Shown piece by piece: positions 26,354 to 32,808 of a DNA stretch of 64,000 nt. The translations under genes and the position numbers were made by a program. The notes beneath the pieces are model-generated. The model was not told the origin of the DNA and searched no databases. It saw only the letters and a list, made by a program, of their open reading frames with translations. The first letter of the stretch is position 1, and each line of letters begins with the position of its first letter. The stretch comes from Sulfuricurvum sp. (GTDB lineage Bacteria > Campylobacterota > Campylobacteria > Campylobacterales > Sulfurimonadaceae), in contig DYMK01000002.1 of NCBI GenBank assembly GCA_020721585.1, positions 62,001 to 126,000 of the forward strand, read 5' to 3'.

Positions 26354-26418
26354 CCATAACCCTTAAGAAACAATCCGATACCATTTAAAGGATAAAAATA
26401 CTGCGAGTGGGTAAAAAA

Positions 26419-28902
26419 ATGGGCAACACGATTACTATTGAGGGAGACAACAAAGATGCTATTGTCATAGGGGATAATAATAAGGTAATCACCCAAAAGG
26501 CTCCCCACACCATCCCCAAAAATTTAGCCTCCACCCTCACCCCCACCCTTGCGCATTTCGTGGGGAGGGAATCGGAGCTAGAAGAGATTGAACAACGGCT
26601 TAAGGAGGATTCCATGCTTTTGTTGCTCAATGGTATCGGGGGGATCGGGAAAAGTACCCTCGCGTCGTACTATTTTCACCACCACAAAGAGCGTTTTGAC
26701 CATTATGGCTACGTGCAGGTCGATGAGGCGATTGAGCTGAATTTTAAAAAAGCGTTTGCGACATCGTTGGATTTGAAAAACGAGACCCTTGAGGAGTCTT
26801 TTGAGGAGGCGATCGGTAAGCTCTCCAATCTCAGCGGGAAAAAACTGCTGGTCATTGATGATCTCAAAGTCGCCTCCGACTCCCCCTCACTGCGTGCGAT
26901 TTTGGGATTGGCACACTGTGGGTTTACCCTCTTGTTTACCTCACGCACGACGTTTCCCAATCTACCCCATCGCTTCGTAGAGCATCTCCCCCTTCCCAAC
27001 GCCAAAGAGCTTTTTGGCAAACACTATCCCAAAGCCGTGGATGAGGAAAAACTCGAACAGCTCTTGCGCATCATCGACTCCCATACCCTCCTTATCGAAC
27101 TGATCGCCAAGATTATGGTCGAAGAGGGATACACCTTGGATCACATCCTCACGCAACTCTCCCAAGGGGCGATGGTCACGATCGAATATACCGACGATGA
27201 GGGGCGTTTGGCGATGATCAATGATCGTCTCAATCGCCTCTTTAATCTCCAAAATCTCTCAGAGACGTACCTTCTCTTGCTCAAAAAGTTCGTTATCCTC
27301 CCCTCTGCTGATCTTCCCTTTGGGGAACTTTCCGAGATATTGGGGGAGACGGCACAGGGGAGACTGACGTTTTTGGTCAAACGGGGGTGGCTCATCGGGG
27401 GAGAAGAGAGCTATAAACTTCATCCCATTCTCCATGCCTATCTCATTGCCAATACTCCCCCCACGAGGGAGGAGATTTCCCCCCAGTTTGACTTTTTTAT
27501 GAACGCTATTCGTAACAGTACTCCTTCCGATGAGCTGAGTAAAAAGAATCATGATTTGCCTTATTTTGAGGCGATGGCGCGGTTTTGGGTAAAAAATGGG
27601 TCGATGGAGAAGAAAATAGGCTATTTTTTAGCTCAATTGGGATTTCTTTATCATTCCATCGGAGCGTACGGTCACGCCCTAGAGTATCTCGAACGCTCGC
27701 TTGCCATCTGCCAAGCCATCGGGGATAAAAGCGGTGAGGGGACGACGCTCAATAATATTGGTCAAATCTACAAAGCACGAGGCGATCTGACCACCGCCTT
27801 AACGTACCTGCAACAATCGCTTACTATCCGCCAAGCCATCGGGGATAAAAAGGGTGAGGGGATGACGCTCAATAATATTGCTGCAATCTACCACGCACGG
27901 GGTGATCTGACCACCGCCTTAAGGTACCTGCAACAATCCCTTGCCATCTACCAAGCCATCGGGAATCAACGCGGTGAGGGATCGACGCTCAATAATATTG
28001 GTCAAATCTACCAAGCACGAGGCGATCTGACCACCGCCTTAACGTACCTGCAACAATCCCTTGCCATCTACCACGCCATCGGGGATAAAAGTGGTGAGGG
28101 ATCGACGCTTAATAATATCTCTCAAATCTACGACGCACGAGGCGATCTGACCACCGCCTTAACGTACCTGCAACAATCCCTTGCCATCTACCACGCCATC
28201 GGGGATAAAAGTGGTGAGGGATCGACGCTTAATAATATCTCTCAAATCTACGACGCACGAGGCGATCTGACCACCGCCTTAACGTACCTGCAACAATCCC
28301 TTGCCATCTACCACGCCATCGGGGATAAAAGTGGTGAGGGATCGACGCTTAATAATATCTCTCAAATCTACGACGCACGAGGCGATCTGACCACCGCCTT
28401 AACGTACCTGCAACAATCCCTTGCCATCTACCACGCCATCGGGGATAAAAGTGGTGAGGGGACGACGCTCAATAATATTGCTGCAATCTACCACGCACGA
28501 GGCGATCTGACCACCGCCTTAACCTACCTGCAACACTCCCTTGCTATTCTCCAAGCCATCGGGAATCAACGCGGTGAGGGATCGTCGCTCAATAATATTG
28601 CTGCAATCTACCAAGCACGAGGCGATCTGACCACCGCCTTAACCTACCTGCAACACTCCCTTGCTATCCGCCAAGCCATCGGAGATAAATCGGGGATGTG
28701 TGCCACCCTTTTTAATATTGGGCATATCCATTGGAAAAATGACGACCACGACCAAGCAATCCAAAACTGGGTAGAGGCGTATCGTATCGCCAAAAAAATA
28801 GAGTATGCAGAATTACTTAATGCTCTTGAAGGATTGGCGAAAGATTTAGGGCATGAAGAGGGGTTGGGATATTGGGAGCGTCTTAGTCGTGAGAGACCCT
28901 GA
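26419..28902 (+). CDS. STAND-type NTPase with a C-terminal tandem TPR array
   Basis: An 827-residue protein. The N-terminus (NTITIEGDNKDAIVIGDNNKV) is a short beta-rich lead often seen in front of STAND ATPases. The NTPase domain (~45-330) has Walker A NGIGGIGKSTLA near 70, Walker B KLLVIDDL near 143 and sensor-like TSRTTF. Residues ~415-775 are nine TPR units of exactly 40 residues with consensus LTTALTYLQQSLAIYQAIGD. At DNA level these are 120-base repeats, some identical. No dedicated effector domain is visible. STAND proteins sense invaders or stress; this one may work with the divergent nuclease. The ATG at 26419 is preferred over GTG 26407. The stop codon lies in a palindromic repeat. 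Confidence 0.85.
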   Translation: MGNTITIEGDNKDAIVIGDNNKVITQKAPHTIPKNLASTLTPTLAHFVGRESELEEIEQRLKEDSMLLLLNGIGGIGKSTLASYYFHHHKERFDHYGYVQVDEAIELNFKKAFATSLDLKNETLEESFEEAIGKLSNLSGKKLLVIDDLKVASDSPSLRAILGLAHCGFTLLFTSRTTFPNLPHRFVEHLPLPNAKELFGKHYPKAVDEEKLEQLLRIIDSHTLLIELIAKIMVEEGYTLDHILTQLSQGAMVTIEYTDDEGRLAMINDRLNRLFNLQNLSETYLLLLKKFVILPSADLPFGELSEILGETAQGRLTFLVKRGWLIGGEESYKLHPILHAYLIANTPPTREEISPQFDFFMNAIRNSTPSDELSKKNHDLPYFEAMARFWVKNGSMEKKIGYFLAQLGFLYHSIGAYGHALEYLERSLAICQAIGDKSGEGTTLNNIGQIYKARGDLTTALTYLQQSLTIRQAIGDKKGEGMTLNNIAAIYHARGDLTTALRYLQQSLAIYQAIGNQRGEGSTLNNIGQIYQARGDLTTALTYLQQSLAIYHAIGDKSGEGSTLNNISQIYDARGDLTTALTYLQQSLAIYHAIGDKSGEGSTLNNISQIYDARGDLTTALTYLQQSLAIYHAIGDKSGEGSTLNNISQIYDARGDLTTALTYLQQSLAIYHAIGDKSGEGTTLNNIAAIYHARGDLTTALTYLQHSLAILQAIGNQRGEGSSLNNIAAIYQARGDLTTALTYLQHSLAIRQAIGDKSGMCATLFNIGHIHWKNDDHDQAIQNWVEAYRIAKKIEYAELLNALEGLAKDLGHEEGLGYWERLSRERP
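27661..28740 (+). repeat. tandem 120-base repeats coding for TPR units
   Basis: Nine 120-base units in frame, the first (27661-27780) divergent. From 28021 to 28460 the sequence is identical to itself at a shift of 120 bases, so the units starting 28081, 28201 and 28321 are perfect copies. The other units differ mainly at a few positions per unit (for example GGTCAAATC versus GCTGCAATC). Such sameness indicates recent amplification or gene conversion, and copy number is likely to vary between strains. Confidence 0.95.
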
Positions 28903-28950: not shown

Positions 28951-28972
28951 CTAAGACCCTGAGTCTAGCTGG

Positions 28973-28992
28973 ATTCCCGCTCTCTAGGGAAT
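28973..28992. repeat. dRS3-like palindrome ATTCCC-N8-GGGAAT
   Basis: ATTCCC, GCTCTCTA, GGGAAT inside CTAGCTGGATTCCC...GGGAATGACA. Here the inner arm bases no longer pair, while the outer six-base arms are intact. It lies 20 bases before the next gene. Confidence 0.8.
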
Positions 28993-29012
28993 GACATAGT
29001 AAAGGATTTTTT

Positions 29013-29309
29013 ATGAAATACATCGCGCTTATCGCATTTCATTTTGGGAATGTGTTGTTTTTTATTTTTTCGGCATTGGTGGGAATCTTTTTTCTCTTAG
29101 CCATCTCCAGTGATCCCCTTGTGTCCCTTTTTTTCCTCATTATGATCCCCATTTGGATAGGGTATACCAAAATCCTCACCCAAATCAAAACCGCACCCCA
29201 CGACAATGCGCGTATCCGTTATCAGTTTCAAGCAGCATTGGTCGCATGGGGAAGCATCTTTTTGGTTTTTGGTGGATGTATCTATCTCATTGATTTTAGC
29301 GCGCGCTAA
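29013..29309 (+). CDS. small membrane protein, unknown function
   Basis: A 98-residue protein with about three hydrophobic helices (~8-31, 36-52 and 72-93). AAAGGA precedes the ATG. The stop shares a base with the start of the Lgt-like gene (TAATG), so it is the first gene of a tightly coupled five-gene operon. No family recognised. Confidence 0.65.
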   Translation: MKYIALIAFHFGNVLFFIFSALVGIFFLLAISSDPLVSLFFLIMIPIWIGYTKILTQIKTAPHDNARIRYQFQAALVAWGSIFLVFGGCIYLIDFSAR

Positions 29310-29992
29310 TGACCATCCATCTCCTCTTTGATCTGCTCTCCTACAGCGTCGCGTTTCTCATCTCGTGGAAATGGATACGCCCATCTTCCCCCACCATCGC
29401 CGATGAGACCGTTGCTTATGGGTATTACACCGTTTTACTGATCGGATTTTTTATCGGAGCCTTTGGGTTAGGAACGCTCAATGCCTACTACTCGACCCAT
29501 ACGATGGTGATCGGAAAATCGGTTTTGGGGGCGTTGTTTGGGGGGATTGTTGCCACGGAAGTGTTTAAATACTTCATGGGGATTCGTGGCTCCACGGGGG
29601 CGTATTTTGTCCCCTCACTCTCCATTGGGATCGCCATTGGTCGCATTGGGTGCTACATGGCAGGATTAGACGATTACACCTACGGCATTGCGACCACGTC
29701 GATCTTCGGGCATGATTTTGGGGATGGGGTGTTACGTCATCCGGTTCAACTTTATGAAAGTGGGGCGATGGGACTCTTTTTTCTCTACAGCGTGAGCGCG
29801 TATTATCACAATCAAGACCAGTTTGAAGCGACCATTTTTTACCAATTCGTCGGATACTACGCCCTACAACGATTTATATGGGAATTTTTAAAACCCTATG
29901 CTACCATTGGGTGGGGATTTACCCTTTTCCAGTGGCTTTGTGTGCTATTGATGCTTTATGCCCTTATTTTTTGTGTTAGGAAACGACGATGA
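29309..29992 (+). CDS. prolipoprotein diacylglyceryl transferase-like membrane protein (atypical signature)
   Basis: A 227-residue polytopic membrane protein with about seven helices, resembling Lgt, which transfers diacylglycerol from phosphatidylglycerol to the lipobox Cys. Similar parts are GIAIGRIGCYMAGLDDYTYG near residue 110 and RHPVQLYES near 145 (Lgt: HPxQLYE). The classical GRxGNFxNxE signature is changed: Cys-Tyr replaces Asn-Phe and the Asn/Glu are absent. It overlaps a lipoprotein gene by ATGA, two lipoproteins in all following. It may be a specialised Lgt paralogue or may act on another lipid or substrate. Confidence 0.75.
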   Translation: MTIHLLFDLLSYSVAFLISWKWIRPSSPTIADETVAYGYYTVLLIGFFIGAFGLGTLNAYYSTHTMVIGKSVLGALFGGIVATEVFKYFMGIRGSTGAYFVPSLSIGIAIGRIGCYMAGLDDYTYGIATTSIFGHDFGDGVLRHPVQLYESGAMGLFFLYSVSAYYHNQDQFEATIFYQFVGYYALQRFIWEFLKPYATIGWGFTLFQWLCVLLMLYALIFCVRKRR

Positions 29993-30666
29993 GACAGTTT
30001 GTAATGATGATAATCGTGGCGTTACTCTTAAGCGGATGTATGACCGCCATGTTATGGGAAGACTCCCCTAACAGTGGGATCCAAACGACCACGTATAGCG
30101 ATACGATTGAATCGTTTATGGTCACCCAGGATGGGAGTAAAATGGTTTTTGCGAGTCAAAAGTACCATTATATTCTTGAGAGTGACCCTGCTTTGGTTTT
30201 TTTGTTGTCCCATAAAGATGAATTGGCGGTGCGCTACGCGTTCCCGCAAGGCAGTTACGGTGTTTACAATGGTGCGGTGAATGCGATGTTTCATGCCACG
30301 TTAAATCTGGTCGATATTGATCCGCAACTGATCCACCTTTGCAATGAACGCCATTATGGGAATTTTCAGGGGAGTCAACTGCTCTTTTCGTTTAATCTGC
30401 ATGGGACACGTTACCAAAGTGATCCCAAGATCAACGCGCAAATGACCCACCTACACACCCCTATCACCCTTGAGTTTAGGGAATCAACCAGCCCCAGTGA
30501 AGCCCAAAAAAACGTCAAAACCCTCACCAAAGTCGCCCTCACCCCCCTTACCTTGGCAGCGGATGGGGCGATTATTATTTTGGGGGTGATTTTGGAAAGT
30601 GGCTTATGGATTGAGCCTCATTACCACTCCCATGGCAGAAGAAATTATGGACGACGACATCACTAA
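29989..30666 (+). CDS. lipoprotein, first of a tandem paralogous pair
   Basis: The 225-residue product starts MRQFVMMIIVALLLSGCMTAMLW: a lipoprotein signal with lipobox LLSGC. The body shares long stretches with the next gene: ESFMVTQDGSKMVFAS, YHYILESDPALVFLLSHKDEL, SFNLHGTRYQSDPKIN and a hydrophobic C-terminal segment (LTLAADGAIIILGVIL). The tail is His/Arg-rich (HSHGRRNYGRRHH), possibly metal- or acid-lipid-binding. Function unknown. Confidence 0.75.
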   Translation: MRQFVMMIIVALLLSGCMTAMLWEDSPNSGIQTTTYSDTIESFMVTQDGSKMVFASQKYHYILESDPALVFLLSHKDELAVRYAFPQGSYGVYNGAVNAMFHATLNLVDIDPQLIHLCNERHYGNFQGSQLLFSFNLHGTRYQSDPKINAQMTHLHTPITLEFRESTSPSEAQKNVKTLTKVALTPLTLAADGAIIILGVILESGLWIEPHYHSHGRRNYGRRHH

Positions 30667-30681
30667 AAAAAGGAATCAACG

Positions 30682-31332
30682 ATGAAAAAAATGTTTTGGG
30701 CAGTGTTAACCCTTGTGGTTGTGAGTTTTATGTTTATGGGGTGTTTTACCACCATGTTATGGGATAAAAAGGGTGCTTCGACCACCACAACCCGCTATCA
30801 CGAGACGATTAACGCCTTTATGATGAGTCAGGATGGTAAGACGATCCTTTTTGGCAGTGACCGTTACCATTATTTGTTTCAAAGTGATCCGACGTTGGCG
30901 TTTTTATTGACCCACAAAGATGAATTGCCCGTGGTTTATCAATTTGACAAAGGGTCGTATTGGGTCAATCCAAACAACGCAACGCAAGCAATGTTTACCG
31001 CCGATGTGGATCTAAACCGTTGCGAACCCCTTTTGGTCACGACGATGAGTGATAACCATTTTGGAACCCTAAATGCCAAGACCAACAGCCTCCATTTTTC
31101 GTTTCGTCTTCAGGGTGAGCGTTATCTCAGTGACCCAAAAATCAATGATAAGCTCACCCTCCTACGTACCCCCATTGGGTTGACTGTGACAGAATATCAT
31201 GAAACGTCCCATGCAGGAGAAACGGTTGGAAAAATCCTCCTTACCCCCCTTGCCATCGCTGCGGATGGGGTGACCATTGTTATTGGTGCGGTGATATTAC
31301 TCCCCGTTCTGATTCTTTCTGGGGGGCGTTGA
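30682..31332 (+). CDS. lipoprotein, second of a tandem paralogous pair
   Basis: A 216-residue paralogue of the preceding gene, with signal MKKMFWAVLTLVVVSFMFMGC (lipobox FMGC), then TTMLWDKK, YHETINAFMMSQDGKTILFGS, YHYLFQSDPTLAFLLTHKDEL and RYLSDPKINDK. A C-terminal helix (ADGVTIVIGAVILLPVLIL) ends without the His-rich tail of its sister. Its TGA overlaps the radical SAM start (TGATG). Arose by duplication; family not recognised. Confidence 0.75.
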   Translation: MKKMFWAVLTLVVVSFMFMGCFTTMLWDKKGASTTTTRYHETINAFMMSQDGKTILFGSDRYHYLFQSDPTLAFLLTHKDELPVVYQFDKGSYWVNPNNATQAMFTADVDLNRCEPLLVTTMSDNHFGTLNAKTNSLHFSFRLQGERYLSDPKINDKLTLLRTPIGLTVTEYHETSHAGETVGKILLTPLAIAADGVTIVIGAVILLPVLILSGGR

Positions 31333-32723
31333 TGGCACATTACTCCCAAAAATACGACCTCTATTTAGGCTCCACCCAAAGTTTTTGTCACCTCTGTGGC
31401 ACCCTTACTAAACTCATCGATACCCATATCGTGACCAAAGACAATGCGGTATTTTTGCGCAAATTTTGCCCCAAATGCGGGGAATCGATGGTCAAAATCT
31501 CCAGTGACTATGAGTATTTTAAAACCTGTGAGAGCTATCTTAAAGCCCCCGATTTACCCGAAATGGCGAACACTCAGGTGTTACGCGGGTGTCCTTTTGA
31601 CTGTGGGGTGTGTCCTCAGCACCAAAATCATCCCTGTCTTGCCCTCTTTAACATCACCGATGAGTGCAATATGAAGTGCAATATCTGCTATTTCTCCTCC
31701 TATCCCGGAGCGGGGAATCATCGAAGCATGGAAGCGATTCAGCAGATGCTCTCTACACTCCTCAAAGTCGAAAGCACGCCCGATCTCATCCAAGTGACGG
31801 GGGGGGAACCAACCACCCATCCCCAAATTATGGAGATTTTGCGCTATCTCAAAAAATCGCCCGTCCGTCATTTGATGCTCAATACCAACGGTATCCGTAT
31901 TGCCCAAGAAGAGGCGTTTGTCAAAGAGCTGAAATCGCTTGGGGCAGGGTTTGAAGTCTATTTGCAGTTTGATTCGATGCAAGAAGAAGCACTTCGCGAT
32001 ATTCGCGATAGAGATATGCGTTCTATCCGTCTGAAAGCATTGGAGTTGCTTGAAAAGTACAGCATTTCCACCACACTGGTGTGCGTTATCAAAAAAGGGG
32101 TCAATGACCATGAGATTCCCGACCTTATCGATTTTTCTCGACGCTACACCTGTGTCCGTGGGGTGGTTTTTCAGCCCGTCCAAGAGGCAGGACGAATTGA
32201 GGCGGTGGAGGGTTTTCGCATTACCCTCTCGGAAATACGCTCCCGTATTATCGATGATCCACGCAATCCGTTCACCGGCGAAGACATGATCCCCCTCCCC
32301 TGCGATCCGCACAAAATCGGAGTGGGCTATGCGGCAAAAACGATGCGCGATGGTTACGCCGATTTGTTCCCCGTCACGGGAAAAATCCCCAAAGAGATGA
32401 TCACCACCCATACGGGGACGGTGGCGTTTGAGCAAGATCGTGCGTTTGTCAAAACCATCATCGATACAGTGAGTTTGGATACGGCGATGGGGGAAGCGAT
32501 TCTCAAAGATAAAATTAAACAAAAACTTTTTTGTTGCTGGCCCGATTTTTTAGCTCCTGCGGATATGGGGTATGAAAACGTCTATCGGATTGTTATTATG
32601 GAATTTTCAGACCTTTATAACTTTGATTCGACTAACATTAAGCGTGAGTGTAATTTTATGATCGAACCGGATCGGGCGATTCCGTTTTCGACCTACAATA
32701 TGGGGATTAAATTTTCACACTAA
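31332..32723 (+). CDS. radical SAM protein of the MJ0619/tetraether-synthase (Tes)-like group
   Basis: The 463-residue enzyme has an N-terminal Cys-rich zone (CHLCGTL near 15, CPKCGES near 45), RGCPFDCGVCPQHQNHPC near 90, the radical SAM motif CNMKCNIC near 112, GGEPTTHP (SAM), LNTNGIRIA, YLQFDS and a C-terminal CNFMIEPDRAIPFSTYN. This order matches COG1964 radical SAM proteins such as archaeal MJ0619 and Tes, which carry extra FeS clusters; members join lipid tails or act on pterins. The GGGGGG before the ATG favours 31332. Being in an operon with an Lgt-like enzyme and two lipoproteins, a lipid or lipoprotein modification is inferred. Confidence 0.8.
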   Translation: MAHYSQKYDLYLGSTQSFCHLCGTLTKLIDTHIVTKDNAVFLRKFCPKCGESMVKISSDYEYFKTCESYLKAPDLPEMANTQVLRGCPFDCGVCPQHQNHPCLALFNITDECNMKCNICYFSSYPGAGNHRSMEAIQQMLSTLLKVESTPDLIQVTGGEPTTHPQIMEILRYLKKSPVRHLMLNTNGIRIAQEEAFVKELKSLGAGFEVYLQFDSMQEEALRDIRDRDMRSIRLKALELLEKYSISTTLVCVIKKGVNDHEIPDLIDFSRRYTCVRGVVFQPVQEAGRIEAVEGFRITLSEIRSRIIDDPRNPFTGEDMIPLPCDPHKIGVGYAAKTMRDGYADLFPVTGKIPKEMITTHTGTVAFEQDRAFVKTIIDTVSLDTAMGEAILKDKIKQKLFCCWPDFLAPADMGYENVYRIVIMEFSDLYNFDSTNIKRECNFMIEPDRAIPFSTYNMGIKFSH

Positions 32724-32736
32724 CAACCACTTCGTC

Positions 32737-32756
32737 ATTCCCGCAACGGCGGGAAT
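32737..32756. repeat. dRS3-like palindrome ATTCCC-N8-GGGAAT
   Basis: GTCATTCCCGC AACG GCGGGAATCCAGCT: same element as at 20798 but in the opposite orientation. It lies 13 bases after the radical SAM stop and could terminate that operon. Confidence 0.85.
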
Positions 32757-32808
32757 CCAGCTCTCTTTTAAAGGGAAAAAATTTACTACACCAACAGGAG
32801 AGTATTTA

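What the first reader, a model, noticed from the sequence alone, without database searches (positions are those of the whole stretch)
29013..32723. Operon joining an atypical Lgt-like enzyme, twin lipoproteins and a Tes/MJ0619-like radical SAM enzyme
Seen: five genes with TAATG, ATGA and TGATG overlaps (one 15-base gap between the lipoproteins); Lgt-like HPVQLYE but altered GRIGCYMAGL signature; two paralogous lipoproteins; a radical SAM protein with the extra Cys motifs of the COG1964 group. Known: Lgt lipidates lipoproteins; Tes joins lipid tails by radical C-C bonds. Inferred: a dedicated lipid or lipoprotein modification system, for example unusual acyl linkage of the two lipoproteins or a membrane-spanning lipid.
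Basis: partly seen in the sequence, partly recalled or inferred. Interest (0 to 1): 0.68.

Follow-up and report, generated by a model that had tools for sequence, protein, structure and literature searches.

The report
Lgt-like/radical-SAM membrane-cysteine lipidation cassette (predicted)
Across at least five bacterial phyla, a divergent lipoprotein-lipidating enzyme and a relative of the enzyme that welds archaeal membrane lipids together travel as a pair, with tiny membrane proteins whose one shared feature is a cysteine at a membrane-helix end, which suggests an undescribed way of attaching lipids to proteins.

Summary
The five genes, the overlaps, the 45%-identical lipoproteins, the divergent Lgt and the Tes/TrsS-type radical SAM enzyme are all there.

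The conserved core is the pair Lgt-like + radical SAM. It sits together in all 29 close loci (Campylobacterota, Ca. Gracilibacteria/Altimarinus, one Thiomargarita contig), in 7 of 10 more distant gammaproteobacterial loci, and in Persicobacter (Bacteroidota), two mycobacterial plasmids and Nonomuraea. Of 397 Campylobacterota genomes, the Lgt-like gene occurs in only four, each time beside the rSAM. The twin lipoproteins are optional.

Seventeen relatives average 23% identity; their only invariant column is a cysteine near the C-terminus, at the predicted periplasmic end of the last helix. Such small proteins lie in 33 of 39 cassettes, about 40-fold above background, and in 0 of 25 related rSAM loci without Lgt-like genes.

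Best explanation (inferred, about 0.4): the Lgt paralogue puts a glycerolipid on this membrane-exit cysteine, and the rSAM tailors the lipid. The Lgt lipid pocket is kept; H103 and N146 are replaced. Tes membership fails its cut-off, so C-C tail joining is not specifically supported.

The parts
29013..29309 (+). Small 3-TM membrane protein (98 aa) with one Cys 10 residues before the C-terminus (SIFLVFGG-C-IYLIDFSAR): candidate lipid acceptor
   Evidence: TM segments, Cys position; 17 homologues, Cys the only invariant column; positive-inside: K/R 60 before vs 9 after the last TM over 22 proteins
29309..29992 (+). Divergent Lgt paralogue (227 aa): donor-pocket residues R112/R188/Y184/E150 (= R143/R239/Y235/E202 of E. 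coli Lgt) kept; H103 replaced by Leu, N146 by Cys
   Evidence: (5azb Z 13.6, 210 of 227 aligned)
29989..30666 (+). Lipoprotein A (225 aa), lipobox LLSGC followed by MTAMLWED; optional part
30682..31332 (+). Lipoprotein B (216 aa), 45% identical to A, lipobox FMGC followed by FTTMLWDK; optional part. No homologue elsewhere in this genome
31332..32723 (+). Class-D-like radical SAM enzyme (463 aa) of the Tes/TrsS superfamily: C19/C22/C46/C49 rubredoxin-like site, C87/C91/C94+H97 N-cluster, C112/C116/C119 radical SAM cluster, invariant C66, C102, C274, C324, C402, C440
   Evidence: 7tol TM-score 0.70
28967..29000 (.). Copy of a dispersed REP-like repeat just upstream of the operon (not thought to belong to the system)
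32729..32762 (.). Inverted copy of the same dispersed repeat just downstream of the operon (47 exact copies genome-wide)

Best explanation
The operon encodes a dedicated system that lipidates membrane-exit cysteines. Step 1 (inferred): the cytosolic radical SAM enzyme, a relative of the tetraether lipid synthase, tailors a glycerolipid tail or another small lipid substrate common to all hosts. Step 2 (inferred from kept active-site residues): the Lgt paralogue, which keeps the phospholipid head-group pocket of Lgt, transfers the (modified) diacylglyceryl-type group to a cysteine thiol. Step 3 (inferred from conservation and topology): the acceptors are the small dedicated membrane proteins, whose cysteine sits at the periplasmic end of an in-to-out helix (a 'C-terminal lipobox' in gene 1 and its relatives; a first-helix [ST]CGG form in Gracilibacteria and some gammaproteobacteria), plus, where present, the operon's own lipoproteins. 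Shown here: co-inheritance of the pair, presence of membrane-cysteine partners, invariance of that cysteine, the Lgt fold and donor residues, and the Tes-like fold and cofactor motifs. No chemistry has been shown.
For: Lgt-like + rSAM adjacent in 29 of 29 close loci and in 7 of 10 gammaproteobacterial loci, Persicobacter, M. avium, M. branderi and Nonomuraea. Lgt-like gene in 4 of 397 Campylobacterota genomes, each beside the rSAM. Small TM-Cys protein in 33 of 39 cassettes, 0.74 per kb against 0.019 per kb-strand background, and in 0 of 25 related rSAM loci without Lgt-like. The Cys is the only invariant column among 17 proteins at 23% mean identity; the C-terminus is predicted outside; the residue before it is mostly G/T/S/A, as in lipoboxes. 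Donor residues R143, R239, Y235, E202 are kept in all Lgt-like proteins checked, while H103 becomes L/V/A/I/M and N146 becomes C/A. Lgt fold Z 13.6. rSAM fold closest to a lipid-binding enzyme, GDGT-MAS (PMC9433317). Within the Campylobacterota/Thiomargarita set the rSAM is 77% identical, the Lgt-like 59% and the small protein 23%, as expected if the rSAM acts on a common lipid and not on the variable peptides.
Against: No direct evidence of lipid transfer. H103 is essential in E. coli Lgt (PMC4728403) and here is aliphatic; natural Lgts tolerate Y/W/F there (PMC13251419), but aliphatic residues are not mentioned in the passages read. N146C is linked to low or uncertain activity (PMC13251419). 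The small proteins could be regulatory or structural subunits, and their Cys could serve redox or metal binding. The C-type and N-type small proteins are not demonstrably homologous. The enzyme that would flip a modified lipid to the periplasm is not known. The mycobacterial rSAM lacks the N-cluster motif.
Confidence: 0.4

Rival explanations
1. Peptide maturation. The radical SAM enzyme modifies the small membrane proteins or lipoproteins themselves (thioether, C-C cross-link or methylation around the Cys), as in RiPP maturation, and the Lgt-like protein adds the lipid anchor. The product would be a lipidated, radical-modified peptide.
For: Small dedicated ORFs beside the enzymes, often duplicated in tandem (L052, L092, L098, M. 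avium, M. branderi), look like precursor peptides. A RiPP-lipoprotein hybrid made with the ordinary lipoprotein pathway is known (DAG-RiPPs, PMC12636315).
Against: The rSAM is 66-77% identical between loci whose small proteins share almost nothing but a Cys; no leader-binding RRE or SPASM domain was found by Pfam; the Cys is predicted periplasmic while the enzyme has no evident export signal.
Confidence: 0.2
2. Free-lipid product. The pair makes a membrane-spanning or otherwise cross-linked glycerolipid; the small proteins are accessory subunits.
For: Closest fold and structure hit is GDGT-MAS/Tes; the RS, N-cluster and rubredoxin-like sites are kept; an rSAM paralogue in the same phylum sits with ketoacyl-synthase and SDR genes.
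Against: Below the Tes cut-off (231 of 450 bits). Tes C-terminal Cys and Tyr459 are not kept. An Lgt relative has no obvious role in tail coupling. It does not explain the invariant membrane-exit Cys.
Confidence: 0.14
3. Small-molecule or cofactor route. The radical SAM enzyme methylates or modifies a soluble or quinone-like substrate, and the Lgt-like protein attaches that cofactor or its lipid carrier to the membrane Cys (a covalently held redox cofactor).
For: Related rSAM genes without Lgt sit beside methyltransferases and DUF547 or CcdA/disulfide-redox genes; Pfam names the N-terminal zinc ribbon after a pterin methyltransferase; a substrate common to all hosts fits the very conserved rSAM.
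Against: The Lgt head-group and diacylglyceryl pocket is kept, which points to a glycerophospholipid donor; no methyltransferase or redox gene is regularly linked in the Lgt-bearing cassettes.
Confidence: 0.13
4. Ordinary second Lgt plus an unrelated radical SAM gene, held together by chance or co-transcription.
For: Many genomes have Lgt paralogues (MSMEG_5408, PMC13251419).
Against: Strict linkage across at least five phyla, with changing flanking genes and lipoproteins.
Confidence: 0.03

Closest known systems
Lgt, phosphatidylglycerol:prolipoprotein diacylglyceryl transferase (E. coli, PDB 5azb/5azc)
   Same: Fold (Z 13.6, 210 of 227 residues), R143, R239, Y235, E202, the HPxQLYE motif and the S-x-x-G-G/A-L frame around position 103
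   Different: H103 replaced by an aliphatic residue in all members checked; N146 by C or A; signature becomes GR[ILF]G[CA]xxxGL.D.T[YFH]G outside the actinobacteria; 26 bits against the TIGR00544 cut-off of 118.9 in the window; a canonical Lgt coexists in the genome
Tes / GDGT-MAS (MJ0619, PDB 7tol/7tom), tetraether lipid synthase
   Same: Overall fold (TM 0.70), CX3CX2C radical SAM cluster, N-cluster C-x3-C-x2-C plus His, rubredoxin-like N-terminal site
   Different: Rd site CxxC...CxxC, not CxxC...CxxH; C-terminal Cys rewired (RCC to REC, PFC to PFS453, new FCCWP401-402, PLPC324DPH); Tyr459 becomes Met; 231 bits against cut-off 450; 28% identity
TrsS radical SAM (seleno)protein family (NF045646)
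   Same: Best NCBIfam match, full length (264 bits, E 1.6e-78)
   Different: Well under the cut-off of 490; lacks the PFC and CC Cys of Arcobacter-type relatives; linked to Lgt-like and small TM-Cys genes, which 25 related loci without an Lgt-like gene lack
DAG-RiPPs (RiPP-lipoprotein hybrids, PMC12636315)
   Same: Small dedicated genes whose products combine metalloenzyme chemistry and lipidation at Cys
   Different: They use MNIO enzymes and the housekeeping lipoprotein pathway at an N-terminal signal peptide, not a dedicated Lgt paralogue or a radical SAM enzyme

Membership tests
Lgt (prolipoprotein diacylglyceryl transferase, PF01790 / TIGR00544) | Pfam LGT domain above gathering score | tested here: met
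   65.2 bits against 24.9
Lgt (prolipoprotein diacylglyceryl transferase, PF01790 / TIGR00544) | Equivalog score TIGR00544 >= 118.9 | tested here: not met
   26.2 bits
Lgt (prolipoprotein diacylglyceryl transferase, PF01790 / TIGR00544) | Lgt fold | tested here: met
   AF2 pLDDT 87.9; VIA-align 5azb Z 13.6 over 210 residues, next unrelated Z 7.5
Lgt (prolipoprotein diacylglyceryl transferase, PF01790 / TIGR00544) | PG-pocket residues R143, R239, Y235, E202 | tested here: met
   R112, R188, Y184, E150; kept in all Lgt-like proteins aligned
Lgt (prolipoprotein diacylglyceryl transferase, PF01790 / TIGR00544) | H103 (or natural Y/W/F) | tested here: not met
   L/V/A/I/M in all 16 Lgt-like proteins; canonical copy L064 has His
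Lgt (prolipoprotein diacylglyceryl transferase, PF01790 / TIGR00544) | N146 | tested here: not met
   Cys, or Ala in Gracilibacteria; N146C occurs in distant Lgts (PMC13251419)
Lgt (prolipoprotein diacylglyceryl transferase, PF01790 / TIGR00544) | Diacylglyceryl transfer to lipobox Cys | not testable with these tools
   Needs assay
Tes / GDGT-MAS (NF045702) | Curated score >= 450 | tested here: not met
   231.1 bits
Tes / GDGT-MAS (NF045702) | CX3CX2C cluster and N-cluster C3+His | tested here: met
   C112/116/119; C87/91/94 + H97, invariant in 29 sequences
Tes / GDGT-MAS (NF045702) | Rubredoxin site CxxC...CxxH | tested here: not met
   CxxC...CxxC (C19, C22, C46, C49), invariant; a metal site is still likely
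Tes / GDGT-MAS (NF045702) | C-terminal auxiliary cluster with labile Met439 | tested here: inconclusive
   M423 aligns to Met439, but most Cys positions differ; C324, C402, C440 could form another site
Tes / GDGT-MAS (NF045702) | Csp3-Csp3 coupling of lipid tails | not testable with these tools
   Needs lipid mass spectrometry
TrsS (NF045646) | Curated score >= 490 | tested here: not met
   264.3 bits; 291-328 bits for relatives L092 and L070, 195 for M. avium
RiPP / sactipeptide maturase | SPASM or RRE domain with precursor peptide | tested here: not met
   No SPASM or RRE Pfam match; small dedicated ORFs are present
Prokaryotic viperin (pVip) | pVip as best family | tested here: not met
   PADLOC 48.6 bits over the radical SAM core only, against 264 bits full length to TrsS

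The most novel reading that the evidence does not exclude
A previously undescribed protein-lipidation pathway in bacteria: a 'C-terminal lipobox' on small multi-helix membrane proteins receives a radically modified glycerolipid from a dedicated Lgt paralogue, the lipid being tailored by a tetraether-synthase relative; the cassette is patchily shared by Campylobacterota, Pseudomonadota, Bacteroidota, Actinomycetota and Gracilibacteria, probably by horizontal transfer.
Probability: 0.3. Interest if true: 0.88.

Novelty: categorically new. Interest (0 to 1): 0.72.

Why it matters
Known bacterial diacylglyceryl lipidation uses an N-terminal lipobox and the housekeeping Lgt (established knowledge; PMC8689077). 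A cross-phylum cassette that pairs an Lgt paralogue with a Tes-type radical SAM enzyme and acceptors carrying a cysteine at the end of a transmembrane helix would widen what counts as a lipoprotein. It would also give a function to some bacterial Tes-family enzymes, which the GDGT-MAS authors found in bacteria not known to make biphytanyl chains (PMC9433317). The three parts are small and can be tested by co-expression. 'Categorically new' is meant at the level of the system: both enzymes belong to known superfamilies.

Tried and rejected
Twin lipoproteins as the essential partner: rejected, since several loci (L037, L040, L045, L048, L051, L052, L057, L058 and all Gracilibacteria) have none between the core genes. 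Mobile unit bounded by the flanking 34-nt inverted repeats: rejected, since it is a dispersed REP-like palindrome with 47 exact copies in the genome. Viral or defence origin: no IMG/VR hit, and only generic viperin similarity in PADLOC. RNA elements: none at gathering threshold. Plain Foldseek with the Lgt-like model gave no significant hit (best E 0.05; 5azb not among the 50 rows shown); the structural aligner on Foldseek's own candidates ranked E. coli Lgt first by a wide margin, so the miss is put down to Foldseek. The rSAM model has low confidence in its C-terminal third, so the rewired Cys could not be placed in 3D. Literature: the search pairing radical SAM with prolipoprotein diacylglyceryl transferase found only incidental papers, and a combined neighbourhood search found none.
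Full report
1. What is there. The organism is a Sulfuricurvum-type campylobacterote: the nearest relatives are Sulfuricurvum sp. PD_MW2 (90% rSAM identity) and PC08-66 (80%). A canonical Lgt sits elsewhere in the genome (218.7 bits), so gene 2 is a second, divergent copy. The lipoproteins have no other homologue in the genome.

2. Conservation. In 299 genomes of the order, only five carry the close rSAM clade, in scattered genera. A profile of the Lgt-like protein searched in 397 Campylobacterota genomes hits four, each at the rSAM locus. A scan of about 85,000 species genomes gave 28 close loci, in Sulfuricurvum, Sulfurovum and other Campylobacterota MAGs, one contig binned as Thiomargarita nelsonii, and six Gracilibacteria/Altimarinus-type contigs in which TGA reads as Gly. 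Every one of these and the window locus has the Lgt-like gene on the same strand just upstream of the rSAM. Profile searches then gave ten more distant gammaproteobacterial genomes. Seven have the Lgt-like gene adjacent. Two have instead a DUF547 protein and a methyltransferase, and one is a more distant rSAM beside SDR genes. Plasmid records added Persicobacter psychrovividus, Mycobacterium avium pS2b, M. branderi pJCM12687 and Nonomuraea. In the rSAM tree the Campylobacterota, Gracilibacteria, gammaproteobacterial and Persicobacter sequences form one group with the actinobacterial trio deeper; the DUF547-linked pair falls inside the group, and the Thiomargarita copy falls within Campylobacterota. 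That copy is either horizontal transfer or misbinning of a 6-kb contig.

3. The third component. In 17 proteins from loci immediately upstream of the Lgt-like gene, mean identity is 23% (minimum 11%). The only invariant column is one Cys, 6-11 residues from the C-terminus, right after the last predicted helix, with Phe six residues before it in 16 of 17. Positive charges number 60 in the 15 residues before the last helix and 9 after it over 22 proteins, so the tail, and the Cys, should face the periplasm. This is the geometry of an Lgt substrate: an in-to-out helix ending in Cys, here at the C-terminal end of the protein. The residue before the Cys is mostly G, T, S or A. Two mycobacterial proteins carry the same design (GWALxSxLxAGxCTGLNP), as do Persicobacter (FVIGTGICGSLLS) and gammaproteobacteria. 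Gracilibacteria and some gammaproteobacteria have instead small proteins whose first helix ends in Cys, usually CG or CGG. By one fixed criterion, 33 of 39 cassettes hold such a protein, at 0.74 per kb of cassette against 0.019 per kb-strand of the flanks. Of 25 related rSAM loci without an Lgt-like gene, none does. Of the six cassettes missed, five have at least one lipobox lipoprotein and the sixth (L097) has both a lipoprotein and a small Cys protein just outside the search range. The criterion was written after seeing the examples, so the enrichment is descriptive; the gammaproteobacterial, Persicobacter and actinobacterial cases, which turned up after the pattern had been noticed in Campylobacterota and Gracilibacteria, are the nearest thing to an independent test. 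No small protein tested matches a Pfam or NCBIfam family above cut-off.

4. The Lgt-like protein. AlphaFold2 gives pLDDT 87.9. The structural aligner puts E. coli Lgt first (Z 13.6, 210 of 227 residues; next 7.5). Alignment to Lgt shows R143, R239, Y235 and E202 kept in all members examined. These are residues of the phosphatidylglycerol pocket (PMC4728403, PMC8689077). H103, essential in E. coli, is aliphatic in all of them, and N146 is Cys or Ala. H103 is Y, W or F in some natural Lgts, and arm-2 residues with H103 and the head domain are held to set protein-substrate specificity (PMC13251419). The simplest reading is that the lipid donor side is kept and the acceptor side changed.

5. The radical SAM protein. 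It is full-length related to TrsS and Tes but far below both curated cut-offs. The fold is nearest GDGT-MAS (TM 0.70), with modest model confidence. The RS cluster, the N-terminal cluster (C3H) and a rubredoxin-like Cys4 site are invariant. The C-terminal region differs: CC becomes EC, PFC becomes PFS, and C324 and FCCWP (C402 invariant, C401 in 24 of 25) are features of the clade. Since the [4Fe-4S]C cluster is where GDGT-MAS holds its carbon intermediate (PMC9433317), the same C-C coupling cannot be assumed.

6. Mechanism. Within the Campylobacterota/Thiomargarita set the mean identities are rSAM 77%, Lgt-like 59%, lipoproteins 30% and small proteins 23%; to Gracilibacteria, rSAM 66% and Lgt-like 35%. 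An enzyme that stays this constant while the peptides change freely most likely acts on something common to all hosts, such as a lipid. An Lgt-like partner that drifts faster fits one that meets different acceptors. Hence the proposal: the rSAM tailors a glycerolipid, and the Lgt-like enzyme puts it on membrane-exit cysteines of dedicated small proteins and, where present, the operon's lipoproteins, whose lipobox is followed in most by a conserved xT..xLW motif. Shown: linkage, partners, invariance, topology prediction, folds. Inferred: every chemical step. Rivals are peptide maturation, a free lipid product, and a small-molecule or cofactor route.

7. Novelty. No held paper found here describes this association. 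Lgt paralogues, bacterial Tes homologues (PMC9433317) and RiPP-lipoprotein hybrids (PMC12636315) are known separately. The system as a whole is, as far as these tools show, undescribed.

Noticed in passing
window 26407-28902: NB-ARC/TPR protein whose TPR region is eight near-identical 120-bp tandem repeats (91% match), a likely recently expanded STAND-type protein just upstream of the operon.
   Followed up: partly
window 28967-29000 and 32729-32762: Inverted copies of a REP-like palindrome (TCATTCCCGC..GGGAATCCAGCT) abut both ends of the operon; 47 exact copies occur in the genome and none in the reversed-pattern control.
   Followed up: yes
L035 1315-6900 (genome G163): Another Tes/TrsS-type radical SAM paralogue sits with SDR and ketoacyl-synthase genes, suggesting a fatty-acid or polyketide-linked role; L101 in a gammaproteobacterium shows a similar rSAM-SDR-rSAM set.
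   Followed up: partly
L034 2725-6311 (genome G163): Two tandem Tes-like radical SAM genes follow a PEMT/ICMT-type membrane methyltransferase, another possible lipid-modifying set.
   Followed up: partly
L099 5518-8674, L100 3669-6819: A related rSAM, nested in the tree among the Lgt-linked ones, is instead followed by a DUF547 protein and a methyltransferase, with no Lgt-like gene and no small TM-Cys protein.
   Followed up: partly
L104 1323-5634 (M. branderi plasmid pJCM12687) and L103 2111-5431 (M. avium plasmid pS2b): Cassette with two tandem CTGLNP-tailed small membrane proteins, annotated hypothetical; in M. branderi twin DUF3558 lipoproteins precede it, echoing the twin lipoproteins of the window.
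   Followed up: partly
G498, G499, G500 (Gracilibacteria), G501 (Thiomargarita): Each of these genomes carries a third Lgt-family gene besides the canonical one and the cassette copy; its neighbours were not examined.
   Followed up: no
L007-L024 (family f20): A TrsS-like radical SAM gene (~30% identical to the window's) recurs in one family of the order, without Lgt-like or small Cys partners; its function is unknown.
   Followed up: no
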